Assembly: GCF_024749285.1 (NCBI RefSeq)
Contig: NZ_CP087196.1
Coordinates: 4,340,001-4,404,000, forward strand
Length of the DNA: 64,000 bases
DNA from: Pseudomonas sp. B21-015
GTDB lineage: Bacteria; Pseudomonadota; Gammaproteobacteria; Pseudomonadales; Pseudomonadaceae
Reading direction: 5' to 3'
Position numbers and translations under genes: made by a program. Shown piece by piece: positions 5,784 through 8,932 of this stretch (positions are counted from its first letter, which is position 1; each line of letters starts with the position of its first letter). The notes beneath the pieces are model-generated. The model was not told the DNA's origin. It did no database searches and worked only from the letters and a program-made list of their open reading frames with translations.

Positions 5784-6335
5784 TTACTTCTTCTTTTTCG
5801 GGGCGATGACCATGATCAGCTGGCGTCCTTCCATCTTAGGATGCTGTTCGACCGAACCGTACTCGAGCAAGTCACCTTCAACTCGCTTGAGGAGTTCCAT
5901 CCCCAGCTCCTGGTGGGCCATCTCACGGCCGCGGAATCGCAAGGATACCTTGGCCCTGTCCCCGTCACTCAGGAAACGTACCAGGTTGCGCAGTTTTACC
6001 TGGTAATCCCCTTCCTCCGTCCCTGGACGAAACTTGATTTCTTTAACCTGAATCTGCTTCTGGTTTTTCTTGGCTGCGGCAATCTGCTTCTTCTTCTCGA
6101 AGATCGATTTGCCGTAGTCCATCAGTTTGCAAACAGGGGGTACTGCATCGGCGGAAATTTCCACCAGATCCAGCTTGGCCTCTTCAGCCTTAAGAAGCGC
6201 GTCTTCAATTGACACAATCCCAAGCTGTTCACCTTCAGCCCCAATTAACCGAACCTCGCGTGCCGAGATATTCTCGTTGATCGGGGCTTTCGGTGCAGCT
6301 CGTTTATCTTGTCTCATTTCACGCTTAATAATAAT
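5784..6335 (-). CDS. infC: Translation initiation factor IF-3 (AUU start)
   Basis: IF-3 binds the 30S subunit and rejects wrong initiator tRNAs and non-canonical start codons. The N-domain ([14 protein letters not shown]), the linker rich in Lys ([16 protein letters not shown]) and the C-domain ending VIAPKKKK are all present. The first ATG (6315-6317) lacks a usable Shine-Dalgarno. Upstream in frame come three tandem ATT codons then AAG CGT GAA; GGAG lies just before them. By spacing, the third ATT (6327-6329, 8 nt after GGAG) is the best initiator, giving 181 residues; the span given uses the first ATT (183 residues). AUU starts on infC are known to allow IF-3 to repress its own synthesis. 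The gene overlaps or abuts the thrS stop. Confidence 0.93.
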
Positions 6336-8257
6336 TACTCCGAATCTGGGCGACCACGCCGGGAAACCGCTTGCGCGAGAAACTCAGCGAACTGGGCGAC
6401 GGGCATCGAGCCCAGGTCAGCACCTTCACGAGTACGCACAGCGACAGTCTGCATCTCGACTTCCCGATCTCCGATAACCAAGAGATAGGGAACCTTGAGC
6501 AAAGTATGCTCGCGGATTTTAAAGCCGATCTTTTCATTTCTCAAGTCAGACTTGGCACGAAACCCGCTTTCGTTGAGAGTTTTTTCAACCTCGGCGGCAA
6601 AATCGGCTTGTTTATCAGTGATATTCATAATCACTGCCTGGGTCGGCGCCAGCCACGCAGGGAATGCACCCTCGTAGTGCTCGATCAGAATTCCGACGAA
6701 GCGCTCGAAGGAACCCAGGATCGCCCGGTGCAACATCACCGGGTGCTTGCGACTGTTGTCTTCGGAGACGTATTCGGCTCCCAGACGGACAGGCAGGTTA
6801 AAATCGAGCTGAAGGGTACCACACTGCCAGACGCGACCGAGGCAATCTTTCAGCGAGAACTCGATCTTCGGACCGTAGAACGCGCCCTCGCCTGGCTGCA
6901 AATCGTACGGCAAGCCAGCGCTATCAAGGGCTGCAGCCAGTGCAGCTTCGGCGCGATCCCACAGTTCGTCGGAACCAACGCGTTTTTCCGGACGAGTGGA
7001 CAGCTTCATCTCGACGTCTTTGAAGCCGAAGTCGGCATAAACGTCCATGGTCAGCTTGATGAACGCGGCGGATTCGGCCTGCATCTGCTCTTCAGTACAG
7101 AAGATGTGAGCATCGTCCTGAGTGAAGGCACGAACGCGCATGATGCCGTGCAGCGCACCCGACGGTTCATTACGGTGGCAGGCACCGAACTCGGCCAGAC
7201 GCATTGGCAGCTCGCGGTAGCTTTTCAGGCCCTGGTTGAACACCTGCACGTGGCAAGGGCAGTTCATCGGCTTGATGGCGTAGTCGCGGTTTTCCGACTG
7301 GGTGGTGAACATGTTGTCGGCGTAGTTGGCCCAGTGCCCGGATTTCTCCCACAGGCTGCGGTCAACGACTTGTGGAGTCTTGATCTCCAGATAACCGTTG
7401 TCGCGTTGAACCTTGCGCATGTACTGCTCGAGCACCTGGTACAGAGTCCAGCCGTTCGGGTGCCAGAACACCATGCCCGGCGACTCTTCCTGGGTGTGGA
7501 ACAGGCCCAGGCGCTTGCCGATCTTGCGGTGATCGCGTTTTTCAGCTTCTTCGATGCGCTGAATGTAAGCCGCCAGCTGCTTCTTGTCCGCCCATGCGGT
7601 GCCGTAAACGCGCTGCAATTGCTCGTTCTTGGCATCGCCACGCCAGTAGGCGCCAGACAGCTTGGTCAGCTTGAAGGATTTCAGGAAGCGCGTGTTCGGC
7701 ACGTGCGGGCCACGGCACATGTCGACGTATTCTTCGTGATAGTACAGGCCCATGGCCTGCTCGTTCGGCATGTCTTCGACCAGACGCAGCTTGTAGTCTT
7801 CGCCGCGGGCCTTGAACACTTCGATCACTTCGGCGCGCGGAGTGACTTTTTTGATCACATCGTAATCTTTCTCGATCAGCTGCTGCATGCGCTGTTCGAT
7901 GGCGGCCAGGTCGTCGGGCGTGAAAGGACGCTCGAAGGCGATGTCGTAATAGAAGCCTTCTTCGATGACCGGGCCGATGACCATCTTGGCCGTCGGGTAC
8001 AACTGCTTGACCGCGTGGCCAACCAGGTGGGCGCAAGAGTGGCGAATGATCTCCAGCCCCTCTTCATCCTTTGGCGTAATGATTTGCAGCGAGGAATCGC
8101 TGTCGATGATATCGCTGGCGTCGACCAGCTTGCCATTGACCTTGCCGGCCACGGTGGCCTTGGCCAGACCGGCACCAATGGATGCGGCGACCTCGGCTAC
8201 GGAAACCGGGTGATCGAATGAACGTTGACTGCCATCGGGAAGAGTAATAGTTGGCAT
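6335..8257 (-). CDS. thrS: Threonine--tRNA ligase
   Basis: 640-residue class II synthetase that charges tRNA-Thr and edits mischarged serine. Domains in order: TGS ([14 protein letters not shown] to about residue 62), the editing/SAD domain ([16 protein letters not shown], with the HxxxH-type motif), the catalytic core with zinc ligand Cys in [10 protein letters not shown] and motif 2 ([20 protein letters not shown]), and the C-terminal anticodon-binding domain (ending near [13 protein letters not shown]). The start at 8255-8257 is chosen for GGAGAGGAGG just upstream and for the family N-terminus; the longer in-frame ATG at 8290 falls inside the operator hairpin. First gene of the infC-rpmI-rplT-pheST-ihfA chain. 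Confidence 0.98.
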
Positions 8258-8276
8258 GGCGCCTCCTCTCCTAGTG

Positions 8277-8297
8277 GTGACCCCTACCAAAGGTCAC
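8277..8297 (-). promoter_or_regulatory. Putative thrS translational operator: tRNA-Thr anticodon-arm mimic
   Basis: On the minus strand GTGACCT pairs with GGGTCAC (7 pairs, the last a T-G) around a 7-nt loop TTGGTAG (8284-8290). The loop has T at the position of U33, GGT at the anticodon position (8286-8288; GGU reads Thr codons) and A at position 37. It ends 19 nt before the ATG, directly ahead of the Shine-Dalgarno, so the GGU is at -31 to -29. The E. coli thrS operator has an anticodon-arm mimic at about the same place, to which ThrRS binds and blocks ribosomes. The hairpin is seen; its role is inferred by analogy. Confidence 0.7.
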
Positions 8298-8351
8298 GTG
8301 GGTTGGGATGAGCCAGTACAAGATCCGGTCCAGGCCATTCAATAACGAACG

Positions 8352-8370
8352 CCTGCCTTACAGCGGCAGG
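8352..8370 (-). promoter_or_regulatory. Second hairpin in thrS leader with UGU loop
   Basis: On the minus strand CCTGCC pairs with GGCAGG around a 7-nt loop GCTGTAA whose centre is TGT (8360-8362), matching a Thr anticodon UGU followed by AA. Position 33 is C rather than U. It sits at about -113 to -95 from the thrS ATG, with a mostly unpaired linker to the first hairpin, the layout of domains 4-3-2 in the E. coli operator. Supporting element only; weaker than the proximal hairpin. Confidence 0.5.
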
Positions 8371-8629
8371 AGCCTTGCGGCCAACCGGAAAACCGAACCA
8401 GAGTGACTGGGATTCAAATCAGGGTTATTCGCGCCTCTGCCGCTACCGGGACTGAAGGTCATCCGGAGCCTGCAAACGCCCGAGCAGGGCATGCTAGCAC
8501 AGATGAACGGTCGTCGATGCACCGGGGTTTTCTGCTGGGGCAAATCAGGCTTTTTATGCCAGAGTGCTGAACTTGAACCCCGCGTCACCCATCAGATAAA
8601 AGACATTGACCCAAAAGGAGCATCTCAGC
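8371..8629. other. Divergent intergenic region between thrS and the 8630 gene
   Basis: Holds the thrS promoter (leftward) and the promoter of the small rightward gene. I could not assign -35/-10 boxes with confidence. A GATTCAAATC stretch near 8410 resembles a T-loop but does not fold into a tRNA. Confidence 0.5.
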
Positions 8630-8932
8630 ATGCGTCTGAATCGTTTATTTGCCGTCGTCGCACCCGTCGTCCTGCTGCTGCCGCTGACTGCTCATGCCGA
8701 CTGGCCGAAGGGCGAGCGCGAGAAGTACATGGCGCAGTGCACACAAGCTGCTTCCCCGCAGATTGGCGCTGCGGCTGCAAAAGCTCACTGTGCATGCGGT
8801 GCTGATGCGATCAAATCGTACCCGGCCAGCGACATCCAGTCATTGATGGACAACACCGCCAGTGACGCACTGAAACAAAAAGCACTGACTAAAATTGCCT
8901 CCTGCAAAGCCGATGAGAAGGCGAAAAAATAA
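8630..8932 (+). CDS. Small exported protein, function unknown
   Basis: 100 residues. The start MRLNRLFAVVAPVVLLL follows AAAAGGAG at a good distance; the ATG at 8606 would lie upstream of that site. A signal peptide with cleavage after AHA (about residue 22) is clear, so the product is periplasmic. The mature part is about 78 residues, Lys/Ala rich, with four cysteines (QCTQ, HCACG, SCKAD) that could form two disulphides. No catalytic motif is recognised. Its transcript reads away from thrS; it is monocistronic. Confidence 0.8.
   Translation: MRLNRLFAVVAPVVLLLPLTAHADWPKGEREKYMAQCTQAASPQIGAAAAKAHCACGADAIKSYPASDIQSLMDNTASDALKQKALTKIASCKADEKAKK

What the first reader, a model, noticed from the sequence alone, without database searches (positions are those of the whole stretch)
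8277..8297. tRNA-Thr anticodon-arm mimic directly upstream of the thrS Shine-Dalgarno
The minus strand forms a 7-bp stem with a 7-nt loop TTGGTAG: U33-like T, anticodon-like GGT (Thr), A37-like A. It lies at -40 to -20 from the ATG, with GGU at -31 to -29, where the E. coli thrS operator has its CGU-containing mimic. The loop here would imitate the GGU isoacceptor rather than CGU. This predicts ThrRS autorepression in Pseudomonas, which I have not seen described.
Basis: partly seen in the sequence, partly recalled or inferred. Interest (0 to 1): 0.75.

Follow-up and report, generated by a model that had tools for sequence, protein, structure and literature searches.

The report
Threonine tRNA mimics before thrS
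The start of the gene for the bacterium's threonine-tRNA charging enzyme carries two RNA hairpins that copy the tip of its threonine tRNAs, most likely so that spare enzyme can bind its own message and switch itself off, a control known in E. coli and here traced through Pseudomonas and many families of its bacterial class.

Summary
The minus-strand hairpin 8297-8277 (7 bp, loop TTGGTAG, GGU at -31..-29 of thrS) is in 98 of 98 thrS leaders of Pseudomonas and near relatives, with compensatory stem changes across Gammaproteobacteria. A covariance model of it has one strong hit in this genome, at thrS. In 140 genomes of the class (this one included), 49 of its 53 hits lie at one spot before thrS. 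The E. coli thrS operator hairpin is its homologue (21 of 25 bases); 8294-8280 matches the anticodon arm of this genome's tRNA-Thr(GGU) at 13 of 15 bases.

E. coli also has a second arm, but this construction was found only in Pseudomonas and close kin.

Best reading: a ThrRS-binding translational operator of the E. coli kind. Loop position 34 varies among relatives, so the mimicry rests on G35-U36, not on the GGU isoacceptor. Binding and repression were not tested. New member of a known kind.

The parts
6335..8257 (-). thrS, threonyl-tRNA synthetase, 640 aa, start ATG 8257-8255
   Evidence: ORF; the one TIGR00418 match over the cut-off in the genome, 749 bits; aligns over residues 1-635 with E. 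coli ThrRS 1qf6 residues 1-636; 415 of 640 aligned residues identical to the E. coli protein of L084
8277..8297 (-). arm 1: anticodon-arm mimic GTGACCT-TTGGTAG-GGGTCAC, counterpart of E. coli operator domain 2
8286..8288 (-). anticodon-like GGU of arm 1 (-31 to -29)
   Evidence: 8294-8280 matches tRNA-Thr(GGU) positions 28-42 at 13 of 15 bases
8272..8276 (-). conserved tail CACTA/CACTG directly after arm 1
   Evidence: alignments A1 and A3; 46 of 53 class leaders have CAC there by the scan
8262..8273 (-). Shine-Dalgarno region TAGGAGAGGAGG
   Evidence: which register is used was not tested
8298..8312 (-). conserved linker CTCATCCCAACCCAC between the two domains, partly able to pair with the Shine-Dalgarno
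   Evidence: near-invariant in A2; pairing probabilities
8313..8410 (-). upstream junction domain (CCAGT...ACTGG), counterpart in role of E. coli domain 4
   Evidence: model R2: only match in the genome at E <= 10, E 4.2e-13 (the window is one of the rows R2 was built from); pair counts
8352..8370 (-). arm 2: second anticodon-arm mimic CCTGCC-GCTGTAA-GGCAGG, UGU at 8362-8360
   Evidence: loop GU invariant in 70 of 70 aligned leaders; stem cells 99% paired; folds with z -3.5
8371..8382 (-). small hairpin GGCC-GCAA-GGCT beside arm 2
   Evidence: predicted fold; 93.4% of cells paired in A2; not drawn by RNAalifold
8336..8351 (-). arm 3 CGTTCG-TTAT-TGAATG, making the junction four-way in part of the genus
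   Evidence: a rough scan finds such a hairpin in 36 of 71 distinct domains, with many different complementary stems
8392..8399 (-). 5' strand of the closing helix GGTTCGGT
8322..8329 (-). 3' strand of the closing helix ACCGGATC

Best explanation
The thrS leader is a translational operator of the E. coli thrS kind. Free ThrRS, a homodimer with two anticodon-binding domains, binds the two tRNA-Thr anticodon-arm mimics on its own mRNA (arm 1 next to the Shine-Dalgarno, arm 2 in the upstream junction domain) and so keeps the 30S subunit off the ribosome binding site. When tRNA-Thr is plentiful it competes for ThrRS, and thrS translation is released. Shown here: the two arms, their conservation, stem covariation for arm 1, invariant G35-U36, attachment of arm 1 to thrS, homology of arm 1 to the E. 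coli operator, and resemblance to the host's own tRNA-Thr. Inferred from E. coli: that ThrRS binds, that one dimer holds both arms, and that binding represses.
For: Arm 1 is in 98 of 98 leaders of Pseudomonas and near relatives and in about 70 of 80 loci chosen by protein alone. A1: 97.4% of cells paired, 5 of 7 pairs changed on both sides (2 of 500 shuffles reach this), 25 such cells against 5.7 in shuffles, 0 of 500. A3 (53 genomes, one per family): 35 against 9.2, 0 of 500. R1: in this genome E 3.2e-7 at thrS; the next hit, 0.06, lies inside a 371-codon open frame. In 140 class genomes, 49 of 53 hits lie 221-251 nt before the thrS domain match. In 249 genomes of the phylum there are 44 hits; 39 of the 40 tested lie before thrS, and the other four (G000, G062, G075, G122) do so. 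E. coli arm: 21 of 25 bases identical. Host tRNA-Thr(GGU): 13 of 15, the only 15-mer within two mismatches in the 64-kb window. Arm 2 loop UGUAA equals tRNA-Thr(UGU) 34-38, and its GU is invariant in 70 of 70. ThrRS aligns full length with E. coli ThrRS. In E. coli the mechanism is experimental (passages read: PMC7373986, PMC9976931, PMC3858243).
Against: No binding, expression or transcription-start data; no sigma-70-like promoter was found in 8240-8660. The whole-leader energy is ordinary. In the A1 and A3 scans GT was required, so its constancy there is partly by construction; the unconstrained cases are A2 for arm 2 and the free-loop pattern for arm 1. In A1 'further pair types' does not exceed shuffles (252 of 500). 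Covariation for the upstream domain is weaker: in A4, pairs changed on both sides are reached by 178 of 500 shuffles and such cells by 38 of 500, although A2 gives 1 and 0 of 500. Two near relatives, L036 and L037, have arm 1 but no arm 2 by the scan. Arm 1 was not found in 80 of 133 family leaders of the class. The Shine-Dalgarno is partly paired in the predicted fold (mean unpaired 0.33), unlike the unpaired one stated for E. coli (PMC3858243).
Confidence: 0.87

Rival explanations
1. The inverted repeat GTGACC-N9-GGTCAC is a DNA operator for a transcription factor rather than an RNA arm.
For: It is a near-perfect palindrome; arm 1 is identical in 81 of 98 leaders of Pseudomonas and near relatives.
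Against: G-T wobble pairs are the commonest type at some positions (GU in 15 of 38 at columns 6-20, UG in 23 of 38 at columns 9-17), which fits RNA pairing and not DNA symmetry. The loop is asymmetric, with GT in 98 of 98 where it was left free. The tail and the distance to the start codon are conserved.
Confidence: 0.03
2. The conserved linker (8312-8298) and the Shine-Dalgarno pair below arm 1, so the hairpin is chiefly a masking stem or thermometer; ThrRS plays no part.
For: Linker-Shine-Dalgarno pairing is predicted and the linker is near-invariant in A2.
Against: It does not explain GU at loop positions 35-36, the match to tRNA-Thr, the attachment to thrS across families whose linkers differ, or the second arm. 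It could act together with ThrRS binding.
Confidence: 0.06
3. A transcription attenuator or T-box-like element controls thrS.
For: The terminator scan flags arm 2 with a T-containing tail.
Against: The tail CGTTCGTTAT is no run of T and differs in relatives. One site against 0.5 expected is not notable. No Rfam family, T-box included, reaches its gathering score in the window.
Confidence: 0.02
4. The arm is a relic: inherited from an ancestral ThrRS operator but no longer used in Pseudomonas.
For: No functional data; the arm was not found in 80 of 133 families of the class.
Against: Compensatory stem types near the window (81 leaders with GTGACCT/GGGTCAC, 9 with GTGGCCT/AGGTCAC) and invariant GU in two arms point to present selection.
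Confidence: 0.05

Closest known systems
Escherichia coli thrS operator (domains 1-4), ThrRS autorepression
   Same: Gene, place before the Shine-Dalgarno, 7-bp/7-nt arm with U33-N34-G35-U36, tail CACCACT, 21 of 25 bases of arm 1, and a second upstream anticodon-like arm (in E. coli, as stated in passages of PMC9976931 and PMC7373986).
   Different: Arm 1 reads GGU instead of CGU. The second arm (UGU, 7-nt loop) sits in a three- or four-way junction closed by CCAGT/ACTGG that model R2 does not find in the E. coli locus. The Shine-Dalgarno is partly paired in the predicted fold. No experiments here.
Yeast ThrRS binding to RPC10 mRNA through an anticodon-arm-like element (PMC9956033, passages read)
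   Same: ThrRS recognises a tRNA-Thr anticodon-arm mimic in an mRNA.
   Different: Eukaryote, another target gene, not autorepression of thrS.
Yeast AspRS and HisRS anticodon mimics in their own mRNAs (passages in PMC7373986, PMC9976931, PMC6542539)
   Same: A synthetase binds its own mRNA by anticodon mimicry.
   Different: Other synthetases, other architectures.
T-box leaders of Firmicutes (thrS of Bacillus subtilis; mechanism recalled, passages of PMC3997798 speak of the thrS leader terminator and its processing)
   Same: Leader control of thrS.
   Different: The T-box binds tRNA and acts by antitermination (recalled); no T-box match here.

Membership tests
E. coli-type thrS translational operator | Located in the thrS leader directly upstream of the Shine-Dalgarno | tested here: met
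   8297-8277, -40 to -20 of the ATG; same place in E. coli L084
E. coli-type thrS translational operator | Domain-2 arm with 7-nt loop carrying U33 and the Thr identity bases G35-U36 | tested here: met
   Loop TTGGTAG; 98 of 98 leaders of Pseudomonas and near relatives have GT there without its being required
E. coli-type thrS translational operator | Homology of arm 1 to the E. coli sequence, beyond analogy | tested here: met
   21 of 25 bases including the CACCACT tail; intermediates in many families
E. coli-type thrS translational operator | Second upstream anticodon-like arm (domain 4) | tested here: met
   Arm 2, loop GU in 70 of 70; built differently from E. coli
E. coli-type thrS translational operator | Open Shine-Dalgarno and single-stranded linker between the arms (domains 1 and 3) | tested here: inconclusive
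   Predicted partly paired: linker 0.64 unpaired, Shine-Dalgarno 0.33 unpaired; prediction only
E. coli-type thrS translational operator | Full-length ThrRS with N-terminal domains and conserved anticodon-binding domain | tested here: met
   Aligned over residues 1-635 with 1qf6. Residues I recall as operator contacts in E. coli (N575, E600, R609) are the same in the window's protein; their role is recalled, not from a call
E. coli-type thrS translational operator | ThrRS binds the leader and represses translation; tRNA-Thr relieves it | not testable with these tools
   needs gel shift, toeprint, reporter fusion
T-box | Rfam T-box match / specifier loop, T-box bulge, terminator | tested here: not met
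   no Rfam family reaches its gathering score in the window

The most novel reading that the evidence does not exclude
The gammaproteobacterial thrS operator is a modular array. One ancient arm beside the Shine-Dalgarno is kept by descent, and accessory anticodon arms (none to two more) are added lineage by lineage: a cloverleaf-like junction in Pseudomonas, and tandem copies about 33-36 nt apart in other families, with three in L182. In this genome the two arms copy two different isoacceptors (GGU and UGU), so the leader could weigh the ThrRS occupancy of both pools, and arm number would tune cooperativity and sensitivity.
Probability: 0.3. Interest if true: 0.62.

Novelty: new member of a known kind. 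Interest (0 to 1): 0.5.

Why it matters
The E. coli thrS operator is a textbook case of tRNA mimicry in an mRNA. Showing that its core arm is conserved in many gammaproteobacterial families, with a constant G35-U36, a free position 34 and second arms that differ by lineage, gives a comparative data set of natural variants for ThrRS-RNA recognition and for how autorepression evolves. It also makes a clear, testable prediction for Pseudomonas. In the eight literature searches that ran (an open-licence library, listings capped) I saw no paper describing it there.

Tried and rejected
Whole-leader folding energy: no signal. Megablast of a 38-nt piece of the leader against E. coli genomes: no match; E. 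coli thrS was then reached by a distant search with the gene. Sigma-70 promoter scan of the leader: none found. DNA palindrome, attenuator and T-box readings: see rivals. Reading the upstream in-frame TTG (inside the loop) as a start: rejected because the offset of the loop from the ATG varies among relatives (-26 to -49, and -56 in G044 by its assigned start) while the stem covaries.

Second arms outside Pseudomonas. A strict scan for contiguous stems gave GT loops upstream no more often than several other loops. A scan allowing one mismatch gave GT in 6 of 53 leaders with arm 1 (next best non-tRNA loop 3) against 1 of 80 without it. With R1 unfiltered on 53 leaders the six best non-main hits (16.2 to 9.8 bits, in L242, L254, L182 twice, L200 and L266) are all on the thrS strand just upstream of the main arm, while the next four (9.2 bits) are on the other strand. 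All but the first are individually weak (E 0.2 to 0.92), so tandem arms are likely but not proven. The large excess of AC loops in these scans I put down to the tRNA-Val gene upstream (ARAGORN names it in six of eight loci tried).

Rows dropped or corrected. Of 11 leaders positive only in the scan, five (G012, G033, G058, G094, G132) were kept and six (G016, G025, G082, G085, G124, G139) rejected by judgement. For L180 the scan picked a wrong hairpin; the R1 position was used in A3. Twenty of the 133 starts do not show the usual N-terminal motif and some may be wrong. From A1, L040 and L060 and letter-identical arms were left out. From A2, L036 and L037 (no arm 2) and L004, L006, L009 (close to the window) were left out. 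From A4, L036, L037 and L059 (no domain by the pattern), L023 and L130 (over-long matches) and further near-duplicates were left out. G009 and G106 were dropped because thrS is cut by a contig end; G005 and G050 because no start was found. A2 rows start at -150, so the outer helix is cut off in part of them. The shuffle control failed with a script error and was redone.

Full report
What is there. On the minus strand thrS starts at ATG 8257-8255. The gene is the one TIGR00418 match over the cut-off in a 6.59-Mb genome.

Is it more than chance. Letter-shuffled leaders give such an arm in 0.3% (no mismatch) or 4.2% (one mismatch) of 8100 trials. ThrRS protein alone was used to collect named loci; the tool kept the best 80 of 583. 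The one-mismatch arm scan is positive in 72 of these 80, and also in E. coli; two of the 72 (L040, L060) lack the conserved tail and look like chance. The misses are L051, L054, L063, L068, L077, L082 and L083 (titles: Lysobacterales, Luteimonas, Aquincola, Burkholderiales, a gammaproteobacterial MAG, Methylococcaceae, Methylumidiphilus) and L066 (Halomonas), which shows a degenerate look-alike by eye. For Pseudomonas and near relatives, 98 of 98 leaders (window included; the other 97 give 74 distinct sequences over -140..-45) have the arm, found with a pattern that left the loop free: 81 are identical, and 9 carry GTGGCCT/AGGTCAC.

Covariation. Alignment A1 (38 distinct arms): 97.4% of cells paired, 5 of 7 pairs changed on both sides (2 of 500 shuffles), 25 such cells against 5.7 in shuffles (0 of 500), and 30-56% paired when the strand is slid; 'further pair types' does not exceed shuffles (252 of 500). 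Alignment A3 (53 arms from other loci, one per family, 50 distinct; 2 rows are letter-identical to A1 rows): 92.3% paired, 5 of 7 pairs, 35 cells against 9.2, all five measures 0 of 500. The loop-closing pair is the weak one (24 of 50 unpaired in A3). G-T wobbles are frequent, as expected of RNA and not of a DNA palindrome. GT at loop positions 4-5 was demanded in the A1 and A3 scans, so its invariance there is partly by construction; it was not demanded.

Specificity. Covariance model R1 (the window is one of its rows) hits this genome at thrS with E 3.2e-7; the next of 8 hits is 0.06 and lies inside a 371-codon open frame. In a sample of 140 genomes drawn evenly over the class, this one included (138 with thrS), R1 gives 53 hits in 50 genomes, and 49 of them lie 221-251 nt before the start of the thrS domain match on its strand; the other four have 22.2-23.4 bits. 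Leaders were fetched for 135 of the 138, of which 133 gave a start; 53 of 133 have the arm, 48 of them by R1 and five added from the scan by my judgement, six others being rejected. In 249 genomes of the phylum R1 gives 44 hits, 43 of them in the class; 39 of the 40 tested against thrS lie before it, the exception being the one outside the class (G225), and the four not tested there are G000, G062, G075 and G122, which one search had placed before thrS. Within this sample the arm is attached to thrS and to Gammaproteobacteria.

Kinship with E. coli and with tRNA. The E. coli leader (L084) reads GTGATCT-TTCGTGT-GGGTCAC-CACTG at -35, 21 of 25 bases identical to the window. The window's genome has tRNA-Thr(GGU) with anticodon arm ACCC-TTGGTAA-GGGT and tRNA-Thr(UGU) with loop CTTGTAA; I looked at 19 loci of 68 tRNA matches, so further Thr isoacceptors may exist. 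Arm 1 matches the former at 13 of 15 bases, the only 15-mer within two mismatches in the 64-kb window. Folding closes both the mimic and the real tRNA arm to the same triloop. Position 34 is G 18, C 12, T 5, A 3 in A1 and C 35, G 12, T 4, A 2 in A3; position 33 is T in 35 of 38 and 47 of 53; position 37 is A in 32 of 38 and 48 of 53. The mimicry thus rests on G35-U36, which fits the statement in PMC7373986 (passage read) that G and U act as identity elements in the E. coli mimics. Section 27 of PMC9976931 (read) says only that Thr identity lies in acceptor-stem pairs and the anticodon.

The second arm. Upstream, 8410-8313 forms a junction closed by CCAGT/ACTGG and GGTTCGGT/ACCGGATC. It holds a small hairpin, the arm CCTGCC-GCTGTAA-GGCAGG (8370-8352) and, in part of the genus, a third hairpin (36 of 71 distinct domains by a rough scan, with many different complementary stems). 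In alignment A2 (70 leaders, aligned by sequence only) the loop GT of arm 2 is invariant and its stem cells are 99% paired. Of 80 leaders scanned earlier, 78 have an upstream 7-nt GT arm and L036 and L037 have none; these two were left out of A2. RNAalifold by itself finds the closing helix GGTTCGGT/ACCGGATC and arm 2, but not the CCAGT/ACTGG helix or the small hairpin. Counts on A2: 91.5% paired, 38 double-changed cells against 14.2, 0 of 500. On A4 (34 rows, other trimming) the signal is weaker: 87.3% paired, double-changed cells 38 of 500, double-changed pairs 178 of 500. Model R2, built from A4, finds the domain once in this genome (E 4.2e-13) and, among 46 loci of other genera or second thrS copies, only in Azomonas L059; none in 55 class leaders. 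The rows of A2 and A4 themselves are Pseudomonas, Stutzerimonas (L050), one gammaproteobacterial MAG (L034) and, in A2, Azomonas (L059). In E. coli the second anticodon-like arm (domain 4) has another build. Arm 1 is thus the conserved core and the second arm is lineage-specific.

More arms elsewhere. With R1 unfiltered on 53 leaders, the six best hits besides the main arms are all on the thrS strand just upstream of the main arm (L242, L254, L182 twice, L200, L266). All but the first are individually weak. A strict scan showed no preference for GT loops; a looser one gave 6 of 53 against 1 of 80. I read this as probable tandem arms in at least five leaders, three arms in L182, unproven.

Mechanism. 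In E. coli, ThrRS binds the two arms, its N-terminal part clashes with the 30S subunit, and tRNA-Thr competes (passages in PMC7373986, PMC9976931, PMC3858243). The window's ThrRS aligns over its full length with E. coli ThrRS (415 of 640 identical), and three residues I recall as operator contacts (N575, E600, R609) are unchanged. The step from RNA anatomy to repression is an inference. A possible difference is that the linker can pair with the Shine-Dalgarno, so ThrRS binding could also stabilise a masked state.

Literature. Eight searches of an open-licence library ran; listings were capped. None of the listed titles or passages read reports thrS operators in Pseudomonas. The 1996 EMBO J paper on the E. 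coli operator is not held, and other key E. coli papers were known only from reference lists, so earlier remarks on conservation in other bacteria may exist there.

Verdict. The finding is real and its interpretation is mostly right; it is a new member, with a lineage-specific second arm, of a known kind of operator. Interest 0.5: solid and testable, but the mechanism is known from E. coli.

Noticed in passing
L020 1183-1259, L050 1199-1275, L146 135-211, L205 322-398, L229 121-198, L182 13-89: A tRNA-Val(GAC) gene lies just upstream of thrS in several gammaproteobacterial families (ARAGORN in six of the eight loci tried; a rough pattern for a tRNA end hits 25 of 53 leaders with arm 1 and 14 of 80 without). 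The window has none there.
   Followed up: partly
G164:C24, G183:C5, G402:C14, G419:C1 (second place): A second, lower-scoring thrS gene in four Pseudomonas genomes. The upstream regions of the two that were fetched (L143, L144) have no R1 match and no R2 match, so the second copy may escape this control.
   Followed up: partly
L182 181-202, 212-232, 246-273; L242 105-131 and 140-161; L254 209-225 and 241-268; L200 259-286 and 301-319; L266 256-283 and 297-311: Likely tandem anticodon-arm mimics (two or three) before thrS in other families.
   Followed up: partly
L044-L048 (Psychrobacter) and L038, L039, L041, L064 (Acinetobacter), about -33 to -49 of thrS: These Moraxellaceae have quite different stems (ATGATTG/CAATCAT, ATGCTCC/GGGGCAT) around the same GU loop, natural double mutants of the arm.
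   Followed up: yes
window 8364-8358: The loop of arm 2 lacks the U33 of a true anticodon loop (C here), while the bases UGUAA equal tRNA-Thr(UGU) 34-38; why U33 is dispensable in arm 2 is unexplained.
   Followed up: no
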